NCBI GenBank assembly: GCA_030694985.1
Contig: JAUYTV010000052.1
Span: 1 to 51,277 of the forward strand
Direction: 5' to 3'
Length of the DNA: 51,277 nucleotides
DNA from: Methanoregula sp.
GTDB taxonomy: Archaea > Halobacteriota > Methanomicrobia > Methanomicrobiales > Methanospirillaceae
The notes under the pieces were generated by a model. That model saw nothing but the letters and a program-made list of their open reading frames with translations, ran no database searches and was not told the DNA's origin. Every line of letters begins with the position of its first letter. The first letter of the stretch is position 1. The position numbers and the translations under genes are program-made. This document shows, one piece after another, positions 260 to 44,895 of this stretch.

Positions 260-1849
260 ATGAATCTTAGACAGCCAAATGCGAATGAAGCAACCGGAAC
301 AGTGAACCGCTCAAGGGATGTAGCCCCGTGTTCAGGTATCTGTACCCGGTGCATAGACGGATGCAAAGGCAGCTGTGAGATCTGGTTATCATCGTTTCGG
401 GGCAGGGAAGTTCTCTATCCCGGCCCGTTCGGTGAAATCACCGCAGGTGCAGACAAGAATTACCCGATCGATTACTCCCATCTCAATATCCAGGGATATG
501 CAGTCGGTGCATACGGTCTTCCCGATGGCGTCGAAGCCGGTCCGGACACTGCAATCTTTTCAGATGTGAACACCGAGACCGAGTACGGCTGGGACAAAAA
601 AGTCAGGATGCGCCTGCCCATCTTTACCGGTGCACTGGGATCAACAGAAATTGCACGGGTAAACTGGGAACATTTTGCCATCGGTGCAGCGATCGCTGGT
701 ATCACGTGTGTCTGCGGTGAGAACGTCTGCGGGATTGATCCGGGCTTAAAACGCGATAACAAAGGTAAGGTTATCGAGTCCCCCGAGATGGATCGCCGTA
801 TCAGTGTATATAAGAAATTCCACGATGGCTTTGGAGAGATCCTTGTCCAGATGAATGTTGAAGACACCCGGCTTGGAACCGCGGAGTATGTCGCCAGCAA
901 ACACAACCTGGATACCATTGAACTCAAGTGGGGACAGGGTGCCAAGTGCATTGGCGGCGAGATCAAGGTCAAGTCTCTTGAACGTGCAATCGAGCTCAAG
1001 AAGCGGGGCTATATCGTTCTGCCCGACCCGACTCTTAAGGAGAACCAGGCCGCATTCAAGGCTGGAGCTATCAAGGAGTTCGAGCGCCACTCCCGGCTCG
1101 GCTTTGTTACCAAGGAAGGGTTCTTAGAAGAAGTTGACCGCCTCCGTGACATCGGATTCAAGCGTGTTACCTTAAAGACCGGCGCGTACTCCATGGTAGA
1201 GCTGGCAATGGCCCTCCGGTACAGTTCCGAAGCAAAAATCGATCTGCTCACCATCGATGGAGCTCCCGGTGGAACCGGCATGAGCCCGTGGCCGATGATG
1301 AACGAATGGGGTATTCCCTCGTTCTACCTGCAGTCACTTGCTTATGAATTCGCCTGCAAGCTCGACAAGAAGGGTTTCCGTGTACCTGACCTTGCAATGG
1401 CCGGTGGTTTCTCAGATGAACCCGGCGCATTCAAGGCACTTGCCATGGGAAGCCCGTACTTCAAGGCAGTCTGCATGGGCCGTGGCCTCATGATCCCAGG
1501 AATGGTTGGTAAGAATATCGAGAAGTGGATCAAAGAAGGCGACCTGCCCAAGTCAGTTTCCAAGTACGGCAACAATATGGAAGAGATCTTTGTCTGCTAC
1601 GAGGACCTCAAGGAGAAATTCGGTCCCCGCATGAAAGAGATCCCCATGGGTGCAGTCGGTATCTACACCTATGCCCAGAAGTTCAGGACCGGTCTCCAGC
1701 AGATCATGGCCGGCAGCAGGAACTTCCGGCTCTCGACCATGTCCCGCGATGACTTAATGGCACTGACCGAGGATTCAGCGAAAGTCTCTAAAATCAAGTA
1801 CGTCATGGAAGCACGTCGCGATGAGGCGATGGGCCAGCTGCTCGACTAA
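260..1849 (+). CDS. Stand-alone FMN glutamate-synthase-like protein with N-terminal Cys cluster
   Basis: A 529-aa protein of the FMN-binding glutamate synthase (GltB central domain) family, with the TIM-barrel phosphate-site signature DGAPGGTG in its second half. No glutamine amidotransferase domain or C-terminal GXGXG beta-helix is attached, so it is not a complete glutamate synthase. The N-terminus has five closely spaced cysteines (C24, C28, C31, C35, C39), and further Cys occur at the 'TCVCGENVCG' stretch. It lacks the Cys-x2-Cys-x4-Cys loop seen in the other synthase gene at 9548. The ATG at 260 is preferred because GGAGTG lies 5 nt upstream; an upstream TTG at 236 is in frame but poorly placed. 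It is monocistronic and ends in a hairpin plus T-tract. The substrate is unknown; an FMN/Fe-S oxidoreductase acting on glutamate or a related amino acid is an inference. Confidence 0.85.
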   Translation: MNLRQPNANEATGTVNRSRDVAPCSGICTRCIDGCKGSCEIWLSSFRGREVLYPGPFGEITAGADKNYPIDYSHLNIQGYAVGAYGLPDGVEAGPDTAIFSDVNTETEYGWDKKVRMRLPIFTGALGSTEIARVNWEHFAIGAAIAGITCVCGENVCGIDPGLKRDNKGKVIESPEMDRRISVYKKFHDGFGEILVQMNVEDTRLGTAEYVASKHNLDTIELKWGQGAKCIGGEIKVKSLERAIELKKRGYIVLPDPTLKENQAAFKAGAIKEFERHSRLGFVTKEGFLEEVDRLRDIGFKRVTLKTGAYSMVELAMALRYSSEAKIDLLTIDGAPGGTGMSPWPMMNEWGIPSFYLQSLAYEFACKLDKKGFRVPDLAMAGGFSDEPGAFKALAMGSPYFKAVCMGRGLMIPGMVGKNIEKWIKEGDLPKSVSKYGNNMEEIFVCYEDLKEKFGPRMKEIPMGAVGIYTYAQKFRTGLQQIMAGSRNFRLSTMSRDDLMALTEDSAKVSKIKYVMEARRDEAMGQLLD

Positions 1850-1902: not shown

Positions 1903-1975
1903 CCGGGCAAGACTGGAATATCCTTTTTTTTGGCTCTCCGACATTTCGTGTGGGTAAGATACAGTACAAAAAAAA

Positions 1976-2136
1976 TGTGAGGGTTCCCCGCCTCAGGGCC
2001 TCTCCGAGGCACGGCGGGGCAAGACGGTTTCAACATTTCACTCATTAAAACCGCCGCGGGGGCGCCCCGTCGGGGGCGGCGGCGTTCATCGTGTTTGGGG
2101 GTATGGGGGCATCAGCCCCCATCTTTGTATTCTACC
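1976..2136 (+). repeat. Dispersed 160-bp structured repeat, copy A
   Basis: One of three related copies (others at 20682 and, inverted, 44463). Shared blocks are gggcctct, gaggcac, cggggcaag, aaccgccgcg, ggcgcccc and gttcatcgt, in the same order and spacing. Copy A folds best: an outer stem CCCCGCC/GGCGGGG encloses GCCTC/GAGGC, and a second hairpin pairs CCGCCGC...GCGCCCC with GGGGGCGGCGG. A and C also share the downstream flank to 'cccatctttgta'. No reading frame of note. It lies between the convergent genes ending at 1849 and 2287. The rest of 1850-2286 is AT-rich and shows nothing further. Confidence 0.8.
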
Positions 2137-2286
2137 CAATACATGTGTTACCCATTCAAAATAGCAATGAGCCTTCTTTTTCAACCCATAGTAAATGACG
2201 AAGAGCCTTTTTTTTATGTAGTGCGCTTAAAAAGAAATCATCGCGGATCCGGTAGATAACAAATACTTAAAGACAGTTTATCGTTT

Positions 2287-3429
2287 TTACGATTGTCCCT
2301 TTATAGAAAAAGTATCGAGTACCTGAAGGGTAATTCTTGTGCCAAGTGATGGCTGGATCGCTTCTAACCAGAGGAAGAACCCTACCTTGGGAGGTGTCGG
2401 GCGTTCAAATTTGAAGTGTCCGTCTTTTACCTGCACCATTTTGTGGTACTCTTTCTTCTGTTTTGATCGCAGGTAGATGATCAATTCAAACCCGGGGAGA
2501 TCGGTTGCGATGATCGCTTTTGAATAATATTTTGAAAAATCTGCAAACTCGATCTTTTTTCCTTTCACTGAGAGCCCGTAGGAATCACAGAGAGCTTTTA
2601 TTGCCGGGGGAAACAGTCCGCCGTATAACACCTTCTTGACAATCTGTCCGGTCTGGCTCGTTAACTCCATATTTTTCTTACCGCTCGGTTTTGCGATCTC
2701 GGTAAAAAACTGGGTACGCACTTCGTCATGATAGCGTTTGTAATCGAACGGGTTTTTTGTCGGGATGTCCGTTGCCCGGATCAGTTTTGGGTGGTTATCG
2801 GGATTGTTATAGAGGATACGGGGGCGGTAGTGTTTCACTAACGATTTGATCTGCTCGCACGAGCTGGTGTGGATGATTGCGTTTGTTTTGTCCCTGGCCA
2901 ATCGTTTAACTACTGAATAGTTGGAGAGATCAAATGATGAGACCAGCAGAAATGGTGTAGTCTTCTGGTTGTAGAGATACCCAAGAAGTTTTTTCTTGAA
3001 TTCAATCTCGGCTTCAAATTCTTTTAAGTCAGCCGGGGATGTGACCACTTCAGCAAATGCAATATGGTTGTCCGAGTCGACTAAAAGCAGGTCGAACTCC
3101 GCTAGATCCTGACCGTTACCTCTTACGGTAATGTCACCATATTTCGAATAAAAAATACCGTTCTGACCGAGCTGGACCCCTTCACGCTGATGGGGAGCAT
3201 CAGCACCTTTCATGGCAAGGTATTTTATCCGGTCTGAGTTTTTGGAGATCTCTAAAAACATCTCGTATACAATAGCTTCGAACCAGCGTCCCTCCGCAGT
3301 TCTCATCGGCTCAATATCCGGAGAAAAGAGTTTTTTCCGCTCAACTTTATTCATGTGCCGCGTGGCGTTGAGGGCGATTTTGGCATTCGGTTTGAAATTT
3401 TTAAAATTGGAATTCAGCCACGGGATCAT
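2287..3429 (-). CDS. Orphan protein with PD-(D/E)XK nuclease-like core
   Basis: A 380-aa soluble protein I do not recognise by name. The middle of the N-terminal half reads like a restriction-endonuclease-fold core: an early Glu helix (EGRWFEAIVYEMF), a beta hairpin with FDLLLVD, then FAEVVTS. This is the D...(D/E)-x-K layout except that the last position is V rather than K; a Lys could come from the nearby EFKKK helix. The C-terminal third is predicted mixed alpha/beta with no signal peptide or membrane segment. The upstream region has no clear Shine-Dalgarno, so it may be leaderless. It is a single gene convergent with the gltB-like gene across repeat copy A. Base composition looks somewhat more AT-rich than the flanking operons, so acquisition by transfer is possible. 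A defence or repair nuclease role is only a guess. Confidence 0.65.
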   Translation of the reverse strand: MIPWLNSNFKNFKPNAKIALNATRHMNKVERKKLFSPDIEPMRTAEGRWFEAIVYEMFLEISKNSDRIKYLAMKGADAPHQREGVQLGQNGIFYSKYGDITVRGNGQDLAEFDLLLVDSDNHIAFAEVVTSPADLKEFEAEIEFKKKLLGYLYNQKTTPFLLVSSFDLSNYSVVKRLARDKTNAIIHTSSCEQIKSLVKHYRPRILYNNPDNHPKLIRATDIPTKNPFDYKRYHDEVRTQFFTEIAKPSGKKNMELTSQTGQIVKKVLYGGLFPPAIKALCDSYGLSVKGKKIEFADFSKYYSKAIIATDLPGFELIIYLRSKQKKEYHKMVQVKDGHFKFERPTPPKVGFFLWLEAIQPSLGTRITLQVLDTFSIKGQS

Positions 3430-5592: not shown

Positions 5593-7020
5593 CTACAAAC
5601 TGATCCGGAATGCTCCCTTTGGCACGGTCATCTCGAACCGTGCTCCTTTGCCCGGCTCACCATTTTCGTGAATTGTGATGCCGGTTATGTCAAGTATCTC
5701 CCGCACAAAAAAAAGACTTCGCACTGAGGCCCGGCTCCCCTCACAATGTAAAAAGATCTTCTCTTTTTTCTCATGAGGGACGCCAATGCCGTTGTCTTCA
5801 AAGACAATAATGACTCCCTCAGGAATAACGGTGTACCCCACATGTATAAGGCTGACATGGCCACCGTGCTCTACCGAGTTCTCAAGGAGTCCCTGGAATG
5901 CAGTTTCGAGCAGGGGATCGCCAAAGATTTCGAGATTCTCCGTTTCAATGCTGTGCCGGAGTTCACCGGTTGATATGTGGGATAGACCAAGCAGGAACGT
6001 CAGTTTGACATTCTGAAATTTCGCCGGCCTTTCTCCCATGGTGTAGTAATCTTTGGTAAATTCTGTAATCTCTTTGATAGACCTGACTGCTCGCTCACCG
6101 CGTTCAACATTCTTAATAATTTCATCCGGTCCGGTTGCCTGTTTTTTTACCATCTCTAGGTAACTGTTCAGGATAAAAATCTGAGTGGTTAAATCCTGTC
6201 GGGTCAATTGGGAGAGTACATTGAGTTTATGGTTCACCCGCAGGAGAGTTTCTTCCGCCCGTTTGCGCTCGGTGATGTCAGTAAACATTGCAAAGGATCC
6301 ATGAAAGGACCCGTCTTTTCCGATCAAAGGGGTAGTAGAGACAAGGAATGTGGATATGGCACCGTCTTTTCTTCCGATTCTCCGCTCATGGGTATCAGAA
6401 AATCCGCTCTTTCTTGCCTTTACTTTCTCCTCATGGTCCGGAAGATCATCTTCGGCTATGAAAGATCTGAAAGGTTTTCCTATCATCTCTTCTGCTGTAT
6501 AACCGAGCATCTCCTCCACTCGCTCATTGACATAAGTGGTAACATACTGATCATTGAACATCCAGATTCCTTCACGGGTAGTCTCAACGATCTGGCGGTA
6601 ATTCTCCCTGCTCTCTGCAAGTGAATCATCCGCTCTTTTCCGTGATGCCGCTGACTTGACCGTGTGCGAGAGTTCGGCAAACTGGCTCTTGGGCTCACCA
6701 CCTTTCTGAAGATAGAAGTCCACACCATTGTTGATCGCCTGGATTACCACCTCTTCCCTGCCCCTGCCGGTGAACAGGATGAATGGAACCTGTCCAAAGC
6801 GTGTCCGCACTTCGATAAGGAACCTGATGCCATCCATACCCGGCATCTGGTAATCGGAAATGATGGTATCGAATTTTTCCTGTTCGAGCAAACAGATCGC
6901 ATCAGGTGCGCTCAGTGCCGTAGTTACAATAAAATCCCCGTATTGTTCAAGGAACAACTTTCCGATATCGAGGAGATCGGGTTCGTCATCAACATAGAGA
7001 ATGCGGTACATGGTTTTCAT
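5593..7020 (-). CDS. Receiver-PAS-histidine kinase-like protein with degenerate kinase (pseudokinase)
   Basis: 475 aa. Residues 1-120 form a response-regulator receiver (acidic pair at 11-12, phospho-Asp56 in ISDYQMPG, FTGRG, LQKGG). About 135-260 is a PAS/PAC sensor (ITERKRAEE at its end), about 262-360 a dimerisation region and 360-475 a GHKL ATPase domain. The phospho-acceptor motif LTRHD of the relative at 30547 here reads LTRQD: codon 6196-6198 is CAG, Gln275. The glycine-rich lid that reads TGLGLFF in the relative is SVRSLFF here. N-box (ENSVEHG) and G1 box (DNGIGVP) remain. It therefore probably cannot autophosphorylate but may still bind ATP or a partner. It is transcribed with glnA, 33 bp downstream, and lies before amtB-glnK, so a role in nitrogen sensing is inferred. 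No DNA-binding domain is present. Confidence 0.88.
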   Translation of the reverse strand: MKTMYRILYVDDEPDLLDIGKLFLEQYGDFIVTTALSAPDAICLLEQEKFDTIISDYQMPGMDGIRFLIEVRTRFGQVPFILFTGRGREEVVIQAINNGVDFYLQKGGEPKSQFAELSHTVKSAASRKRADDSLAESRENYRQIVETTREGIWMFNDQYVTTYVNERVEEMLGYTAEEMIGKPFRSFIAEDDLPDHEEKVKARKSGFSDTHERRIGRKDGAISTFLVSTTPLIGKDGSFHGSFAMFTDITERKRAEETLLRVNHKLNVLSQLTRQDLTTQIFILNSYLEMVKKQATGPDEIIKNVERGERAVRSIKEITEFTKDYYTMGERPAKFQNVKLTFLLGLSHISTGELRHSIETENLEIFGDPLLETAFQGLLENSVEHGGHVSLIHVGYTVIPEGVIIVFEDNGIGVPHEKKEKIFLHCEGSRASVRSLFFVREILDITGITIHENGEPGKGARFEMTVPKGAFRISL

Positions 7021-19100: not shown

Positions 19101-19673
19101 ATGGATATCATAGAAAAAGCGGTTTCGATCCTGATGCGTGACGGTATTGTTGTGTATCCGACTGAAACCGTGTACGGGCTTGGTGCCGATGCTTTCTCTG
19201 ATGAAGCGATCTTTAAGGTATACGAGGCAAAACATCGCCCGCTCGGTATGCCGGTATCGATTGCTGTCTCAGATTTTGATATGCTAGCTGCGGTGGCTCA
19301 TGTCGAACCATGGATGGAGACATTCATCCAGTCGTTTCTGCCGGGCCCGGTAACCGTTGTGCTTGCTGCACGAAACAGCGTTCCTGAATCACTTACGGGG
19401 GGAACAGGAATGATTGGCATCCGTATACCGGCACATCCGCTCGCACAGCAGCTCATCGAGCGGTTCGATTCTCCCATCACTGCAACGAGCGCAAACCTCC
19501 ACGGGGCAAAAGACCCACAGGTTCCTGATGAATGCACGGTGCGCTATGACTTCCTGCTCGATGGCGGAAGACTGCCCGGCACCCCCAGTACGGTTGTAGA
19601 TCTCTCTGCACGCACGATCATTCGCGCAGGTGCACAGATTGATAAGATCGCCAAATTTCTTGTAAATCTGTGA
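19101..19673 (+). CDS. sua5: Threonylcarbamoyl-AMP synthase (Sua5/YrdC)
   Basis: 190 aa of the YrdC fold. Conserved PTETVYGLGADA near the N-terminus, the basic substrate motif KHRPLGMPVSI, PGPVTVVL, GIRIPAHPLAQQL and SANLHG. It makes threonylcarbamoyl-AMP from Thr, bicarbonate and ATP for t6A37 in ANN-decoding tRNAs. The extra C-terminal Sua5 domain is absent (YrdC-length). It directly follows the ACT gene (TAA then ATG) and overlaps or abuts the nucleotidyltransferase gene, so the three form an operon next to a tRNA gene. Confidence 0.92.
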   Translation: MDIIEKAVSILMRDGIVVYPTETVYGLGADAFSDEAIFKVYEAKHRPLGMPVSIAVSDFDMLAAVAHVEPWMETFIQSFLPGPVTVVLAARNSVPESLTGGTGMIGIRIPAHPLAQQLIERFDSPITATSANLHGAKDPQVPDECTVRYDFLLDGGRLPGTPSTVVDLSARTIIRAGAQIDKIAKFLVNL

Positions 19674-19684
19674 GACTGCCTTTT

Positions 19685-20608
19685 ATGAAGCCCATCCGGT
19701 TACGTGATTTTATTGAAGACCGGGACGGCTGGATCTATGCAGTCTCCACGTATGACAATTCGGATAAGATCGGCTGCGTACTCCGGTATGTCCCTGATGC
19801 TGATGGCGAGCGTGTGCACGCTTCTGGCACCCGGTATAAAAAATACGATTTTGAAGACGCCTATGCGTTCATCGCGCTTCACAAACCGCAGTATGCCGCT
19901 CTCCTCCAGCGCATTCCCTATAACGATGTGAAACGGGTGTGGAAACCAGATGAAGAATTGCCGCATATCGCCCGCCAGCACCCCAGAGTTCAGAAACTTG
20001 TCGATCTTTTCAAGCTTCCGTCCGGTACCATAGGCTGCACGGGATCGCTCCTATGCGGGCTTGAGAATGATGCATCAGATATCGACATGGTTGTGTACGG
20101 TCGGCACTGGTTTACTGCACAGAAGCGGGTCCGTAAGGGAATCCTTGACGGGAAGGTAAAAGGACTCTCAGTAGAGATGTGGAAGAAAGTCTATGACAAA
20201 CGCAAACCGGAAATTCCCTATGAACAGTTCGTACTCCACGAACAGCGTAAATGGAACCGTGGCCAGATCGAAGGAACGTACTTTGATATACTCTACACCC
20301 GGTCATACGATGAACTGAAAAGTGTCCATCCCGGCAAAGGTACAGTTATAGGAAAGCAGACAATAGAAGCAAAAGTTGTCGATGCTTCACTATCGTTTGA
20401 CAACCCGGCCATCTATGAAATTGAGCACGAATCGGTGAGCCGGGTGCTCTCGTTTACACATACCTACAGCGGGCAGGCACGCGCGGGAGAGATCATTGAA
20501 GCGTGCGGGGTCTGCGAGCAGCACGGCAACGAGCGCTGGCTGGTTGTGGGGACTACACGCGAGGCAAAGGGCGAGTATATCGTGTCAAAAACGCTGCTTG
20601 AACAGTGA
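19685..20608 (+). CDS. Predicted nucleotidyltransferase
   Basis: 307 aa. The Pol-beta-type nucleotidyltransferase signature is visible in the middle: GCTGSLLCGLEN followed by SDIDMVVYG, giving the GS...DxD pattern. N- and C-terminal regions (IYAVSTYDN..., and a beta-rich tail RVLSFTHTYSGQARAGE) are shared with uncharacterised archaeal proteins of this type. It may transfer a nucleotide to RNA or to a protein; the substrate is unknown. I prefer the ATG at 19685; a GTG at 19670 overlapping the sua5 stop is possible. Last gene of the tRNA-Gly/ACT/sua5 cluster, followed by repeat copy B. Confidence 0.8.
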   Translation: MKPIRLRDFIEDRDGWIYAVSTYDNSDKIGCVLRYVPDADGERVHASGTRYKKYDFEDAYAFIALHKPQYAALLQRIPYNDVKRVWKPDEELPHIARQHPRVQKLVDLFKLPSGTIGCTGSLLCGLENDASDIDMVVYGRHWFTAQKRVRKGILDGKVKGLSVEMWKKVYDKRKPEIPYEQFVLHEQRKWNRGQIEGTYFDILYTRSYDELKSVHPGKGTVIGKQTIEAKVVDASLSFDNPAIYEIEHESVSRVLSFTHTYSGQARAGEIIEACGVCEQHGNERWLVVGTTREAKGEYIVSKTLLEQ

Positions 20609-20681
20609 TGGTTTTAAGGTTCGGGCTCTGGTGAAAGCTGTAGAAACGGGAGTTCGCATCTGAATTTAAAAAACCATGATA

Positions 20682-20842
20682 TTGCGAGGCTCCCGCATCA
20701 GGGCCTCTGCGAGGCACATCGGGGCAAGGAGGTTTTGACCTTTATTTGCTATATTTTCCCCGTCATTTTCCAGTCATTGAACCGCCGCGAGGCGCCCCTT
20801 CGGGGGCGGCGGAGTTCATCGTATCCGAAGGGATAGGGGTCT
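20682..20842 (+). repeat. Dispersed 160-bp structured repeat, copy B
   Basis: Same order of blocks as copies A and C: cagggcctct, gaggcac, cggggcaag, gaaccgccgcg, ggcgcccc, ggcggcgg and gttcatcgta. Hairpin GCCTC-TGC-GAGGC and the second hairpin GCGCCCC-TTC-GGGGGCG are intact. The internal linker is longer than in A (extra bases around 20730-20770) and the downstream flank has diverged. It lies between the convergent genes ending at 20608 and 20980. The other parts of 20609-20979 hold nothing I can name. Confidence 0.75.
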
Positions 20843-20979: not shown

Positions 20980-21255
20980 CTAATCAAGGAAGCATTCAGA
21001 GGATGGGACGAACCGGAATTTCTTAAGGATATGCTGCATGATGGGCCGGGGCATCACCACGCTGACATCGCACCCTTCGTTCAGCCACAGCCGGATCAGG
21101 TTCTGGTTGTTTCCTTCGTTCTTCTCCCGCGAGATGACGTAGTGGAGGCAGAGCCGGTTCTCCTCCCGCAGTTCCAGCCAGCCGGAGAAGAGGTGTTCGG
21201 TAAATTCCAGTGCGTCACCCTCAGGGGGTCCGGTCTCAATTCGTTTTGATGTCAT
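20980..21255 (-). CDS. Small hypothetical protein
   Basis: 91 aa, unrecognised. The text reads as a compact alpha/beta protein (FTEHLFSGWLELREEN...CLHYVISREKNEGNNQNLIRLWLNEGCDVSVVMPRPIM). No signal peptide or membrane helix. The ATG at 21255 has GGAAG 8 nt upstream, favoured over an in-frame GTG at 21264. A plus-strand frame over the same stretch (20929-21249) lacks a ribosome site and looks like its shadow. Divergent from the DUF3795 gene. Confidence 0.6.
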   Translation of the reverse strand: MTSKRIETGPPEGDALEFTEHLFSGWLELREENRLCLHYVISREKNEGNNQNLIRLWLNEGCDVSVVMPRPIMQHILKKFRFVPSSECFLD

Positions 21256-30546: not shown

Positions 30547-32586
30547 TTATGGGGATGGTTGTTGAGTATCCGCAATACGGTACTCCCCTTTTGGCACGGT
30601 AATCTCGAACCGGGCGCCTTTACCGTTTGTACCGCTCTCTGTTATGGAAAGCCCGGTGATTGCGAGAACTTCCCTTGTAAAAAAAAGACCAAGACCGGTT
30701 TGTTTCCCAAACCCACGTTCGAAGAGGTGAACCCGGGCATCTGCGTCAACACCAACGCCATTATCGGTGTAAGTGATAACAAGTCCAGCCTCATTTTCGC
30801 TATAGGAGATCGTAATTTCTGTTACGTTTTCTCCATAACGGAGGGTGTTGTCCATTAAGTTATAAAACCCTTTCATGAGGAGTGGATCAGCATAGATCTC
30901 CAGATTGTCTGTGACCACATTCAGGCAGATTCCTGATAGATCAAGTCCCTCAGCAGCGTTCATTGCCGTTGTGCCAACAGCCTGCCATACCGGCGCGTTC
31001 ACCCCCATATTCTCATACTCTTTTGTGAACAGGATCTGCTGGTGGATCATCTCGATGATCATCTGTTCTTTTTTAATCATCTGCTGGAATGTTGGATCCT
31101 GCACACGGTCTGCCGACAACTCCACGTAACCGCTCAGCGCAGTGAGCTGGTTCACCACATCGTGGCGCGTTAGACCGGAAAGCAGGTTGAGTTTCCGGTT
31201 TGCAATCTGGATCGCGTGTTCGGATTTCCTGATCGTTTCGCGCTGTACTTCCAGCTCCCGGTTCCGTGCCAACAGCGATTCCTCGGTTGACTTCAACTCT
31301 TCAAACGCAGCTGCCATCTGTTCATTTGCCGCATTTAACTCCAGGTTCTTTTGCTCAAGTTCCTGCCTTGCAATCTTTCGTGCCGTGATATCGGTGAGCA
31401 TGGCAAACGAGCCCTGGAACATTCCCCCGGCATCCAGAAGAGGGGTTGCCGAGACAAGGCACCAGAGAGGGGACCCGTCTTTTTTGCAGAACTGCCGCTC
31501 ATATACTGAGCTCGCACCTGTGCGCCGCTGCCGGATCTTTTCCATATGATCCGGCATCTCTTCGGCATGCATGAAATCCCCAATGGATCTTCCAAGAATT
31601 TCATCTGATGAATAGCCGAGCATATCAGCGAGGCGGGGGTTGACAAAGACGGCATTCAGTCTGTTGTCAATGGACCAGATACCTTCGTTTGCCGTATCCA
31701 CGATCCGCCGGTAATGCTCTTCACTTGTACGCAGTGCCTGTTCCCGCGACACCAGTTCCTCAAGATTGTTGCGCAGTTCCTCTTCCATTGCGGTGATCTG
31801 TTCATAGGCAGCCCGGAGCTCGTGCTCTTTTTGTCTGCGGTCGGTAATATCTTCAAATACAGTGGCAAAGATTCCTTTTTTTGGAGAATACACCGAGATT
31901 GCTAAATATTTTTTCATCGGGGGGTACCAGATCTCAAAGAATTGCGAAGTCCCGGTCCGGACTACATCGGCATATAAAGCAAGCGCGCTCGACTCATCCA
32001 CGCCAAATACTTCCCGGCTTTTCTTTCCTATTGCGGTATCGCGGGGGATGTTAAAGATCTTCTCAAACGCAGGATTCACCTGGAGGATCCGGTATTCCAC
32101 CGCTATGCCGTTTCTGTCATACACCAGCTCGTTGACAGCATGTCCTTCAACCATGACAGAGAAGAGAGCCCGGTACCGCTCTTCAGATTCATTGATGCGC
32201 ATCTCTGATTTTTTCTGGCTGACCGCCTGCCTGATCTTGTGCGCCAGCTCAGCAAACTGCGGTACAGGGCTGCCTCCTTTCTGGAGATAGAAATCTGCAC
32301 CAAAATTGAGCGCCTCGATCACCACTTCCTCGCGTCCCCTGCCGGTAAAAAGTATGAACGGGAGATCCCCGTGACTGGTCCGGATGTATTTGAGGAACTC
32401 GATGCCATCTGTCACGGGCATCTGGTAATCAGAGATGATCGCATCATAGTGGCTTTCAGCCAGTCGCAGCTGTGCATCAGCAGCAGAATTTGAGGTATCT
32501 ACAGTGATAGTCCCACTCTTTTCAAGATATATCTTTCCAATCTCAAGGAGAGCGGGTTCATCATCAACATAAAGAACGGAAATCAA
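30547..32586 (-). CDS. Receiver-PAS-PAS histidine kinase
   Basis: 679 aa. A receiver domain (1-120, phospho-Asp53 in ISDYQMP), two PAS domains (about 135-260 and 290-410, with ITDRRQK and ITARKIA at their ends), a coiled coil about 410-470, then the kinase core with phospho-acceptor His475 in LTRHDVVNQL. The GHKL domain has DNTLRYG, TDNGVGVD and GLGLFFTREV, so it should be active. No membrane segment is present, so it senses a cytoplasmic signal. It is the intact counterpart of the pseudokinase at 5593. No partner regulator gene is adjacent; its own receiver may act as output or feedback. Confidence 0.92.
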   Translation of the reverse strand: MISVLYVDDEPALLEIGKIYLEKSGTITVDTSNSAADAQLRLAESHYDAIISDYQMPVTDGIEFLKYIRTSHGDLPFILFTGRGREEVVIEALNFGADFYLQKGGSPVPQFAELAHKIRQAVSQKKSEMRINESEERYRALFSVMVEGHAVNELVYDRNGIAVEYRILQVNPAFEKIFNIPRDTAIGKKSREVFGVDESSALALYADVVRTGTSQFFEIWYPPMKKYLAISVYSPKKGIFATVFEDITDRRQKEHELRAAYEQITAMEEELRNNLEELVSREQALRTSEEHYRRIVDTANEGIWSIDNRLNAVFVNPRLADMLGYSSDEILGRSIGDFMHAEEMPDHMEKIRQRRTGASSVYERQFCKKDGSPLWCLVSATPLLDAGGMFQGSFAMLTDITARKIARQELEQKNLELNAANEQMAAAFEELKSTEESLLARNRELEVQRETIRKSEHAIQIANRKLNLLSGLTRHDVVNQLTALSGYVELSADRVQDPTFQQMIKKEQMIIEMIHQQILFTKEYENMGVNAPVWQAVGTTAMNAAEGLDLSGICLNVVTDNLEIYADPLLMKGFYNLMDNTLRYGENVTEITISYSENEAGLVITYTDNGVGVDADARVHLFERGFGKQTGLGLFFTREVLAITGLSITESGTNGKGARFEITVPKGEYRIADTQQPSP

Positions 32587-42101: not shown

Positions 42102-44354
42102 ATGCACAACCCGTTTGACGCGCTCGCGTCCCTCATCGTCACCCGCCCGAAACATCTGGCCGTACTCTTCTGCCTGCTGCTTGTCGTAGCGCTCTACGGG
42201 ATGACCATGATCACCATGGCAACGGGAACGGACACCTACCTTGACAAGGATACCCGGCGCGGGATGCTTCTCGATAAATACACCAAGACCTTCCAGTCCG
42301 ACAGTGTTCTGATTCTCATCGAGTCTGATGACGTGATGAGCCCTGACATCCTCAAGTATATTGACCGGCTCCAGAAGGATCTCGTCCAGGAGCGCTATGT
42401 CACCGGAGCGTCCGGTATCTCCGATCTGGTCAAGGACCAGAATGGGGGTGTGCTGCCTGCCAGTAAGGCTGAGATCACCCGGCTGGAAGAAGGGGTGCCC
42501 CCCGAGATCCTTAACCTTTATGTTCCATCCCGGACCATGACCATCTCTGTCGTCACCGTTGACCAGGGACTTAAGGATGCGCAGGCGTTCACTCTTGTCG
42601 ATAACATCAACAAGAGGGTAAGTCTTTCCACCCCGCCTCCCGGGGTGAGTGTGGTTGTCTCAGGCAACCAGGCATATAACAAAGAGACCTCTGATGAAAT
42701 GAGCACGTCCATGGGAGAACTCATCCTTGTCGCGATGATCCTCATGGTGATCGCTGTAGGTCTGCTTTTCGGTCACGTCCGGTACCGCATTCTCTCGGTC
42801 TTTATCGTCGGGACGGGTCTCATCCTGACGTTTGGGGTTATCGGCTTTTCAGGCATGCAGATCACGATGGTGACCATCGGTGCTTTTCCGGTCATGATAG
42901 GGATTGGGATCGATTACGCGATCCAGTTCCATTCACGATTTGATGAAGAACTTAGAAAATCCCCCATTGCTGATGCGGTTACTACAACCATTACCAAGGC
43001 CGGGCCGTCCGTACTCTATGCAATGCTTGCCACGGCTATGGGTTTTCTCGCCCTTACTATCTCACCACTTCCGATGATCCGCAGTTTCGGCCTGACCTGC
43101 GTAATCGGGATCGTCTGCTGCTACATTGCAGCGATCGTGGTTGTGCCGGTCTTTTCCCTCCTGGTAAATTACCGTCCTGTAGAAGAGCAGGCAAAGAAAA
43201 AAACCGATACCACAAAAACGAATATTGAGCGGTATAACGAATTCATTGGCGGTGTTGTGAAAATAGTATCCCGGAACGCAGTTCCGGTCCTGATTATATG
43301 TGTCCTGTTTGCCGTTATCGGGTTCCAGCTGGACAACGAGGTCATCGTCAACACGGATGAGAAAACTTTTGTCCCGGCAGATATGCCGGCAAAGATAAAT
43401 CTCGACAAGATCCGGCGCACGATGGGCGAGACGTTAAGCGTCCCCGTGATAGTGCAGGGAGATGATCTTCTTTCACCGGATTCTGTCCGCTGGATGTATG
43501 AGTTCCAGAAATACGAAGAGACGCGTAACAGCAAGATTACCGGCTCAACGAGCATTGCAACCTATCTTGTACAGTACAACAACGGGATCCTGCCGCAGAC
43601 AGCCCCTGAGATCGATGCCGTCATGAAAAAGATTCCCCCGCAGATCCGTAACCGGTACGTGAGCTGGAACACCGAGGCTGTTATCGAGTTCAACTTTATT
43701 GCCATGCCCAATGATATCGCCATGTCAACGATCGAGCAGATGAAAAAAGATCTCGCGTGGAAGAAACCCCCGCCGGGCATCCACGCCTCCTTCACGGGCA
43801 TGTGGGAGATGTTTACCAACCTGATCCGCGAGATCCGGGATGGGAAAACATTCATGACCATCCTTGGTTTTGGGATGATCTTTGTCTTCCTCTACATAAT
43901 CTACCGGAAATTCACAAAAGCGGCAACCCCGCTGGTCCCTATCATCATGATAGTTGGCTGGAACGGTCTCATCATGTACATGCTTGCCATCGATTACACC
44001 CCGCTCACCGCAACGCTCGGTTCGATGTCGGTCGGTGTTGCATCGGAATACACGATCCTGATCATGGAGCGATACTATGAGGAGCGTGCAAACGGGCTCG
44101 CCTTGTTGCCGGCAATCCAGTACAGTATTGAAAAGATTGGTACAGCGATTACAGTCTCGGGCATGACAACCGTCTTTGGGTTTGCGGCCCTCATGGTCTC
44201 TGCTTTTGGCATCATCAGTAATTTCGGCACGGTTACGGTCATCTCGGTCTTTTTTGCCCTTGCCGGAGCAATCATCGTGATGCCGGCGATCCTGGTACTT
44301 GTGGGAATGATGGAAGGCGGATCAACGGACACGAAAAAAGATCCGGATGCCTGA
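42102..44354 (+). CDS. RND/MMPL-family exporter (HAE3 type)
   Basis: 750 aa with 12 predicted membrane helices in two halves, each holding one helix, a large extracellular loop and then five helices. The conserved helix-4 motifs are GIGIDYAIQFHSRFDEEL in the first half and VGVASEYTILIMERYYEE in the second. Archaeal members probably export hydrophobic compounds or lipids by proton antiport; the substrate is unknown. An archaeal promoter (aataacttaaag near 42060) precedes it, and AGGAT serves as ribosome site. The gap 41905-42101 otherwise has only T-tracts. Monocistronic, followed by repeat copy C. Confidence 0.9.
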   Translation: MHNPFDALASLIVTRPKHLAVLFCLLLVVALYGMTMITMATGTDTYLDKDTRRGMLLDKYTKTFQSDSVLILIESDDVMSPDILKYIDRLQKDLVQERYVTGASGISDLVKDQNGGVLPASKAEITRLEEGVPPEILNLYVPSRTMTISVVTVDQGLKDAQAFTLVDNINKRVSLSTPPPGVSVVVSGNQAYNKETSDEMSTSMGELILVAMILMVIAVGLLFGHVRYRILSVFIVGTGLILTFGVIGFSGMQITMVTIGAFPVMIGIGIDYAIQFHSRFDEELRKSPIADAVTTTITKAGPSVLYAMLATAMGFLALTISPLPMIRSFGLTCVIGIVCCYIAAIVVVPVFSLLVNYRPVEEQAKKKTDTTKTNIERYNEFIGGVVKIVSRNAVPVLIICVLFAVIGFQLDNEVIVNTDEKTFVPADMPAKINLDKIRRTMGETLSVPVIVQGDDLLSPDSVRWMYEFQKYEETRNSKITGSTSIATYLVQYNNGILPQTAPEIDAVMKKIPPQIRNRYVSWNTEAVIEFNFIAMPNDIAMSTIEQMKKDLAWKKPPPGIHASFTGMWEMFTNLIREIRDGKTFMTILGFGMIFVFLYIIYRKFTKAATPLVPIIMIVGWNGLIMYMLAIDYTPLTATLGSMSVGVASEYTILIMERYYEERANGLALLPAIQYSIEKIGTAITVSGMTTVFGFAALMVSAFGIISNFGTVTVISVFFALAGAIIVMPAILVLVGMMEGGSTDTKKDPDA

Positions 44355-44462
44355 AAAAGAGGATTTTTTTGGACTGCTTATCTAAGATCCTGACCGCCAT
44401 AAAAATCACGGACATTTTTATTTTTGTCAATAGCCGGTTTTGAATGGATAATGAAAGTATCA

Positions 44463-44622
44463 GGTAGATTACAAAGATGGGACTAGTACCCTCATATCCC
44501 CAATACGATGAACGCTGCCGCACCAAAAAGGGGCGCCCCCGCGGCGGTTTTAATGACAAAACTGTTGGAACCCCCTTGCCCCGCCGTGCCTAAAAAGAGG
44601 CCCTAAGGTGGGAGGCATCACA
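44463..44622 (-). repeat. Dispersed 160-bp structured repeat, copy C (inverted)
   Basis: Reverse complement of the element at 1976 and 20682. Read on the minus strand: ttagggcctct, aggcacggcggggcaag, attaaaaccgccgcggg, ggcgcccc, gttcatcgtatt and finally cccatctttgtaatctacc, the last also present in copy A. The loops of both hairpins carry T5 (GCCTC-TTTTT-AGGC and GCCCC-TTTTT-GG) where A and B have three bases. The outer stem is weaker. It lies between the convergent genes ending at 44354 and 44647. Confidence 0.78.
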
Positions 44623-44646
44623 AATCCACATAAAATAGTCTGGATT

Positions 44647-44895
44647 CTATTTTCTCTCTGCGGGCACGTTCTTCTGTATCATGAGTTTCTTGTACATCTC
44701 CTCACCAACACATTCCTTTGCGTGTTTACACCACTGGACGCAGGATGCAATGTCGTTATAGACCACAAAACCGCATCTGCATTTGATGGAGATATCGTTT
44801 GAGAACAATTCCACTTCTTCTCCGCACTGCGGGCATTTTTTTATCGCGAGCGTGGGAGTGCGGATATTTGCAGCACCGGGACAGTGATCAGGCAT
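44647..44895 (-). CDS. Small Cys-rich protein
   Basis: 82 aa. Cys pattern: KKCPQCGEE, IKCRCGF, then ASCVQWCKHAKEC, giving a zinc ribbon plus three helical Cys that could bind a second metal or a cluster. I know similar short proteins from methanogens but not a function. Start ATG at 44895. It follows the SRAP gene on the same strand (12 bp gap), so they may be co-transcribed. Confidence 0.7.
   Translation of the reverse strand: MPDHCPGAANIRTPTLAIKKCPQCGEEVELFSNDISIKCRCGFVVYNDIASCVQWCKHAKECVGEEMYKKLMIQKNVPAERK

What the first reader, a model, noticed from the sequence alone, without database searches (positions are those of the whole stretch)
1976..2136. A 160-bp structured repeat confined to convergent intergenic regions
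Three copies (1976-2136, 20682-20842, and inverted at 44463-44622) keep the same order of conserved blocks and two stem-loops. All three lie between the 3' ends of converging genes and none lies in a promoter or coding region. Loop changes with intact stems suggest selection on structure. Possible roles are a bidirectional transcript end, a chromatin or gyrase-type site, or a small RNA. I know no named family with this pattern.
Basis: partly seen in the sequence, partly recalled or inferred. Interest (0 to 1): 0.65.

Follow-up and report, generated by a model that had tools for sequence, protein, structure and literature searches.

The report
Hairpin-cored miniature transposons of Methanoregula
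The repeated 160-base segment is the middle of a small gene-less jumping DNA element of methane-producing archaea, which accumulates just behind genes; it is a new family of a known kind of element, unusual because the same hairpin-forming core is carried by elements with two different sets of ends.

Summary
The three copies are real and homologous. They are not free-standing structured elements: they are the inner core of miniature inverted-repeat transposons (MITEs). Copy 1 is 276 bp (1932-2207) with ~26-bp terminal inverted repeats (TIRs) and an 8-bp target duplication, TTTTTTTT. Across the genome and close relatives, 10 of 15 tested elements have 7-8/8 matching duplications (0 of 20,000 shuffles). 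The ends match autonomous ISL3-family insertion sequences of the same order (best 20-23 of 26 bases). In other Methanoregula the same three-hairpin core (A-B-C, nearly always in one order and orientation) sits in 410-560-bp elements with different ends, [G/T]GCTCTGTAGAAAC, matching an intact IS5-family element. The core occurs in 37 of 39 Methanoregula genomes and 8 genera of the family, and was not found outside the family. Context: never inside genes; enriched between convergent genes (12 of 23 in this genome against 15% expected; 44% in relatives), depleted between divergent genes, but ~40% lie between tandem genes, so "confined" is wrong. Stems are mostly kept but only one pair covaries. 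Best explanation: ordinary trans-mobilised MITEs that survive at gene 3' ends; a terminator role for the core is possible, untested.

The parts
1932..2207 (+). Copy 1: whole MITE, 276 bp, ISL3-type terminal inverted repeats
   Evidence: TIR pair with 8/8 target duplication; aligns end to end with copies at other genomic sites
1924..1931 (.). Left target-site duplication TTTTTTTT of copy 1
   Evidence: identical to 2208-2215; low-complexity on its own, supported by non-homopolymer duplications at sister copies
2208..2215 (.). Right target-site duplication TTTTTTTT of copy 1
1932..1957 (+). Left TIR GGCTCTCCGACATTTCGTGTGGGTAA
   Evidence: 20-21 of 26 identical to TIRs of autonomous ISL3 elements L225/L226
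2148..2173 (-). Inner right TIR-like repeat (reads GGCTCATTGCTATTTTGAATGGGTAA on -)
   Evidence: 20 of 26 to L227 ISL3 TIR
2182..2207 (-). Outer right TIR (reads GGCTCTTCGTCATTTACTATGGGTTG on -)
   Evidence: 19-20 of 26 to L225/L226 ISL3 TIR
1985..2021 (+). Module A hairpin of copy 1
   Evidence: profile HMM module; stem pairs kept, one strongly covarying pair
2049..2082 (+). Module B hairpin of copy 1 (CCGCCGC...GCGGCGG)
   Evidence: profile HMM module; most conserved segment among own-genome copies
2099..2123 (+). Module C hairpin of copy 1 (TATGGGGGCATCAGCCCCCAT)
   Evidence: profile HMM module
20691..20820 (+). Copy 2: A and B modules, with a decayed C to about 20851 and a ~26-bp insert in the A-B spacer
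20624..20660 (+). Copy 2 left arm, resembles the IS5-type end (GGCTCTGGTGAAA.GCTGTAGAAACGGGAGTTCGCA); right end not found
   Evidence: sequence compared with IS5-type ends; no target duplication identified
44426..44647 (-). Copy 3: decayed ISL3-type MITE (both TIRs degraded), core 44507-44619
   Evidence: TIR limits placed by eye
260..1849 (+). Gene left of copy 1 (glutamate synthase domain, PF01645)
2287..3429 (-). Gene right of copy 1, converging (no Pfam match)
19685..20608 (+). Gene left of copy 2 (nucleotidyltransferase domain, PF01909); start uncertain, Pfam run on 19670-20608
20980..21255 (-). 91-aa ORF right of copy 2, converging (coding score 32; absent at the G019 orthologous locus)
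42102..44354 (+). Gene left of copy 3 (MMPL transporter)
44647..44895 (-). 82-aa ORF right of copy 3, converging; its stop codon abuts the element

Best explanation
The repeat is the core of non-autonomous miniature transposons (MITEs) of Methanoregula. An ISL3-family transposase supplied in trans recognised the ~26-bp ends of the copies like those in this window and pasted them into 8-bp A/T-rich targets. In sister species the same A-B-C hairpin core travels in longer MITEs with IS5-family ends. Insertions in genes and promoters are lost by selection, and AT-rich 3' regions are favoured targets, so surviving copies collect behind genes and above all between converging genes. Shown: homology, TIRs, target duplications, autonomous relatives with matching ends and the same duplication length, intergenic placement and convergent enrichment. 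Inferred: mobilisation in trans, and selection plus target preference as the cause of the placement. Not known: what, if anything, the hairpin core does (plausibly it ends or insulates read-through transcripts, which would make insertions at 3' ends harmless).
For: Own-genome and close-relative copies: 15 TIR pairs tested, 10 with 7-8/8 target duplications against 8 of 210 mismatched pairs, 0 of 20,000 shuffles, duplications 86% A/T; exact non-homopolymer examples ATTAAACT, AAAATTCC, ATAAAAAA, AAAAATTA, TTTCATTT. Ends match ISL3-family elements with ISL3 transposase and exact 8-bp duplications in the same order (L225, L226, L227, L242, L247); the best ISL3 end agrees at 20-23 of 26 positions. 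In other Methanoregula, 25 of 113 IS5-type TIR pairs have 7-8/8 duplications against 1.3 expected. An intact IS5-family transposase (NF033579, 207 bits against a cut-off of 140) lies between GGCTCTGTAGAAA ends with duplication GAATAATC, and sister ISs in several species carry TGCTCTGTAGAAA with 8-bp duplications. ISL3-type ends and exact duplications also occur in other genera (L309 ACTTTTTT, L313 GATTTAAT, read). Copies are present in one species and absent at the matching gap in another (L078 against L252). Placement: 0 in real genes, convergent 52% against 15% (p ~3e-5) and 44-47% against 23-24% (p 2e-6 to 7e-9), divergent depleted.
Against: No intact ISL3 transposase with exactly these ends was found in this genome; the resident one (L060) has a different sub-family end (10-13 of 26 to the MITE ends), so local mobilisation is historical or by a lost partner. 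Window copy 1's duplication is a T-run, and copies 2 and 3 have decayed ends. Hairpins A and B are better conserved among copies (82-84%) than ends and most spacers (45-76%; B-C spacer 80%), which plain neutral decay after insertion would not give, though selection on the source copy could.
Confidence: 0.92

Rival explanations
1. The A-B-C core has been domesticated as a bidirectional transcription end or insulator: the hairpins are transcribed from both converging genes and stop or stabilise the transcripts, and copies are kept for this; mobility is only how they spread.
For: Convergent enrichment and divergent depletion; stems kept in most cells with one strongly covarying pair, 50 compensatory cells against 22 expected; hairpin segments more conserved than most spacers and ends; an element core retained behind the same gene in two species whose other intergenic sequence no longer aligns; order A-B-C almost never broken.
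Against: About 40% of copies lie between tandem genes and some between divergent genes. Copies 2 and 3 fold no better than shuffles. Most stem positions hardly vary, so covariation evidence rests on one pair and related sub-families. No expression data.
Confidence: 0.25
2. REP/BIME-like palindromic repeats spread by a REP-associated tyrosine transposase.
For: GC-rich palindromes in up to hundreds of copies, intergenic, biased to 3' ends as REPs are (PMC3733652); modules combine in arrays.
Against: Terminal inverted repeats and 8-bp target duplications are marks of DDE transposases; no GTAG or CGTC tag was noticed at the ends; module orientation is fixed, not alternating.
Confidence: 0.04
3. 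A chromatin, gyrase or replication-related site distributed by selection.
For: Conserved GC-rich palindromes in intergenic regions.
Against: Transposon ends and target duplications; copy number varies from 0-2 to about 200 candidate sites between congeners; Methanoregula genome G026 has none.
Confidence: 0.02
4. The shared blocks are chance similarity of GC-rich hairpins.
For: GC-rich palindromes are easy to align.
Against: E-values to 7e-59 for other copies in the genome; AT-rich spacers and ends also align.
Confidence: 0.005

Closest known systems
MITEs derived from ISL3-family insertion sequences
   Same: 26-bp ends starting GGCTCTTCG, 8-bp A/T-rich target duplications, no gene, many intergenic copies
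   Different: Carries a conserved three-hairpin GC-rich core unrelated to the ISL3 ends; the exact autonomous partner is not in this genome
MITEs derived from IS5-family insertion sequences (NF033579 group)
   Same: In sister species the same core lies between [G/T]GCTCTGTAGAAAC ends with 8-bp duplications, the ends and duplication length of an intact IS5-family element
   Different: Longer (410-560 bp), with further GC modules; only copy 2 of this window looks like this type, and it is decayed
REP/BIME palindromic repeats
   Same: Palindromic GC-rich modules, intergenic, more often at convergent and tandem than divergent gene pairs (PMC3733652)
   Different: TIRs and target duplications instead of tagged ends; no tyrosine transposase link seen (not searched)
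Short modular repeats such as BOX/RUP/SPRITE of Streptococcus pneumoniae
   Same: Short intergenic elements that cluster and insert into one another, some with terminator-like hairpins (review PMC10969869)
   Different: Different sequences and host; here one fixed core is shared by two TIR families

Membership tests
MITE (non-autonomous DDE transposon) | Terminal inverted repeats at both ends | tested here: met
MITE (non-autonomous DDE transposon) | Target-site duplications of fixed length | tested here: met
   8 bp; 10 of 15 and 25 of 113 pairs at 7-8/8, far above shuffles
MITE (non-autonomous DDE transposon) | No transposase gene, short, multicopy | tested here: met
   About 220-280 bp here, about 30 copies in this genome
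MITE (non-autonomous DDE transposon) | Autonomous element with matching ends | tested here: met
   ISL3 elements L225-L227, L242, L247 in the order; IS5 elements L101, L198, L200, L201 in the genus; for ISL3 not within this genome
MITE (non-autonomous DDE transposon) | Moves in trans | not testable with these tools
   Only presence/absence between species
ISL3-derived MITE | ISL3-type TIR and 8-bp duplication | tested here: met
   20-23 of 26 positions for the best ISL3 end; the IS5 end gives 7-11 of 26
IS5-derived MITE (sister-species elements, perhaps copy 2) | IS5-type TIR and 8-bp duplication | tested here: inconclusive
   Met in UBA154, UBA471, fen_80 and others; for window copy 2 only a degraded left arm was seen
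REP/BIME | GTAG or CGTC tag and tyrosine-transposase association | not tested
   No tag noticed at the ends, no dedicated search for tyrosine transposases; TIR and duplication argue against
Known structured RNA family | Rfam match at gathering score | tested here: not met
   (best 19.6 bits against a cut-off of 38)

The most novel reading that the evidence does not exclude
The three-hairpin core is a transferable 3'-end module: a bidirectional transcription stop that makes its carrier transposon harmless behind genes, which is why it has been taken up by MITEs with two unrelated transposases (and a related hairpin by an autonomous ISL3 element) and kept across one archaeal family.
Probability: 0.18. 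Interest if true: 0.7.

Novelty: new variant of a known kind. Interest (0 to 1): 0.42.

Why it matters
Few MITE families are described in archaea, and in the papers reachable here none was found for Methanoregula. A core shared by ISL3-type and IS5-type MITEs, with a strong 3'-end bias, gives a natural experiment on whether transposons carry terminators that let them live between genes. It also warns that structured intergenic repeats read as RNA or regulatory elements should first be tested for inverted ends and target duplications.

Tried and rejected
Rfam scan, both gathering and permissive: nothing above cut-off. IS6-family partner guessed from the GGCTCTGTTG end: IS6 transposases occur in only 3-4 of 39 genomes and were not pursued; the matching partner was IS5-family. 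A first codon-based gene finder placed copy 2 between tandem genes and put 9 of 23 own copies between convergent genes; a hexamer model corrected this, so earlier context counts are superseded. Repeated swapping of the core between TIR types: the core tree needs at most two changes and a single one is not rejected (AU p = 0.465), so only one capture event is claimed. Orientation bias in tandem gaps: 8 of 9 opposed in this genome but 32 of 55 elsewhere, not claimed. Coreless MITEs as a control for placement: only two found, too few.

Full report
Setting. The window is contig C28 of a 2.49-Mb archaeal genome. A pattern scan for the most conserved block returned named records of Methanoregula and of Methanoregulaceae or Methanomicrobiales MAGs only, so the host genus is Methanoregula.

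Observation. The three copies align over the stated 160 bp with the same block order. A BLAST search of the own genome with copy 1 gives 32 matches, about 30 separate sites, with E-values down to 7e-59 for the other copies. The signal is not chance.

Anatomy. Three GC-rich hairpin modules can be told apart by profile HMMs: A (CCCCGCCTCAGGGCCTCTCCGAGGCACGGCGGGGC), B (CCGCCGCGGGGGCGCCCCGTCGGGGGCGGCGG) and C (GGGGGTATGGGGGCATCAGCCCCCATC). Over the loci held they appear as AB (87), ABC (58), A (36), B (17), AC (15), BC (12) and a few arrays; only one group holds a module in the opposite orientation. Outside the modules lie AT-rich spacers and inverted ends.

Ends and target duplications, this genome and close kin. 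Copy 1 is bounded by GGCTCTCCGACATTTCGTGTGGGTAA and, inverted, GGCTCTTCGTCATTTACTATGGGTTG, with a second inner inverted end at 2148-2173; the whole is 276 bp and is flanked by TTTTTTTT on both sides. Sister copies have exact 8-bp duplications ATTAAACT, AAAATTCC, ATAAAAAA, AAAAATTA and, in fen_80, TTTCATTT; 10 of 15 tested pairs match at 7 or 8 of 8 positions, and none of 20,000 shuffles reaches this. These are the marks of cut-and-paste transposition.

Partner for these ends. ISL3-family transposases are rare in the order (20 of 232 genomes). Intact ISL3 elements there end in GGCTCTTCGTCAGTTTGAGTGGGTA or GGCTCCTCGCTGTTTTATGTGGGTAA with exact 8-bp duplications. The best ISL3 end matches each MITE end at 20-23 of 26 positions, whereas the IS5 end matches at 7-11. 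This genome itself holds one ISL3 element, L060, with a different sub-family end, and a coreless 422-bp MITE that fits that element instead (L252:121-542). So the transposase that spread the window's type is probably gone from this genome (inference).

The same core in other ends. In UBA154, UBA471, fen_80 and others the core lies in 410-560-bp elements that begin [G/T]GCTCTGT[A/T]GAAAC..CATGAAC and end in its inverse. Of 113 end pairs, 25 have duplications of 7-8/8 against 1.3 expected. In UBA154 an intact 1007-bp insertion sequence, L101:1744-2750, has ends GGCTCTGTAGAAA, duplication GAATAATC and an IS5-family transposase. Related elements in several congeners have the same 12-13-base ends and 8-bp duplications. 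Window copy 2 keeps a degraded arm of this type. The core tree joins all ISL3-type A-B cores with three IS5-type cores of fen_80 and LacPavin at 99/97 support; one exchange between element types suffices. The non-coding tail of the resident ISL3 element also holds a hairpin like module D of the UBA154 elements.

Range. The core is found in 37 of 39 Methanoregula genomes and in 24 further genomes of the same family, 8 genera in all; every listed genome with a match belongs to this family. In other genera the B-C part sits between ISL3-type ends, with exact duplications such as ACTTTTTT (L309) and GATTTAAT (L313) read.

Placement. With a hexamer gene finder trained on 438 kb of this genome, 12 elements are between convergent genes, 9 between tandem and 2 between divergent genes; 15% convergent is expected from intergenic length (p ~ 3e-5). 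In other Methanoregula the counts are 54, 55 and 15, with 24% expected (p = 2e-6), and divergent gaps are depleted (12% against 27%, p = 5e-5). Apparent hits inside genes are tiny ORFs within the elements. All three window copies are convergent. The placement is a bias, not a confinement; a similar bias is reported for bacterial REPs (PMC3733652).

Structure. Outer and inner stems of A are mostly intact over 141 distinct sequences, but only one pair varies on both sides in many sequences (T-A in 76, C-G in 50; 126 paired against 72 expected). This fits structure but is mostly two sub-families. Among own-genome copies the hairpins A and B are 82-84% identical, C 75%, the spacers 55-80% and the ends 45-73%. 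That may reflect selection on the source copy, or use after insertion. Copy 1 folds better than shuffles on the minus strand (z = -4.4), copies 2 and 3 do not clearly.

Orthologous sites. Behind the nucleotidyltransferase gene left of copy 2, genome G019 also has an element, and B-C aligns while the rest of the gap does not. In another convergent gap this genome has a copy with ISL3-type arms where fen_80 has one with IS5-type arms. LacPavin L078 has two elements where this genome has an 83-bp gap. Elements therefore come and go, and convergent gaps are used repeatedly.

Conclusion. The repeat is a MITE family with a shared hairpin core. Shown: ends, duplications, autonomous relatives, range, intergenic placement and convergent bias. 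Inferred: mobilisation in trans and purifying selection as the cause of the bias. Open: any role of the hairpins, for which transcription termination is the most testable idea.

Noticed in passing
L060:1275-2760 (G000:C23): Resident ISL3 insertion sequence running exactly to a contig end; its non-coding tail carries a GC hairpin like module D of the UBA154 elements.
   Followed up: partly
L252:121-542 (G000:C25:30120-30541): 422-bp coreless MITE with target duplication AAAAAAAT and ends of the resident ISL3 element.
   Followed up: partly
L263:13835-13981 (G000:C11): 147-bp coreless IS5-type MITE in the own genome, duplication AAAAAAAT.
   Followed up: no
UBA154 (G006), UBA471 (G005): About 200 candidate core sites per ~2.3-Mb genome, far more than most congeners; further GC modules downstream of C and compound or nested elements (e.g. 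L097:1663-2356, L092:301-1212).
   Followed up: partly
L254:5888-6033 and L130 (fen_80): The same convergent gap carries an element with ISL3-type arms in one species and IS5-type arms in the other.
   Followed up: partly
window 44647-44895 (-): The 82-aa ORF ends exactly at the start of copy 3, so the insertion may have replaced the gene's original end.
   Followed up: no
window 6698-6870 and 32273-32445: 173-bp direct repeat at 72% identity inside ORFs, probably paralogous domains.
   Followed up: no
G026 (Methanoregula, 97% complete): The only congener without any match to copy 1; a candidate for a lineage that lost the family.
   Followed up: no
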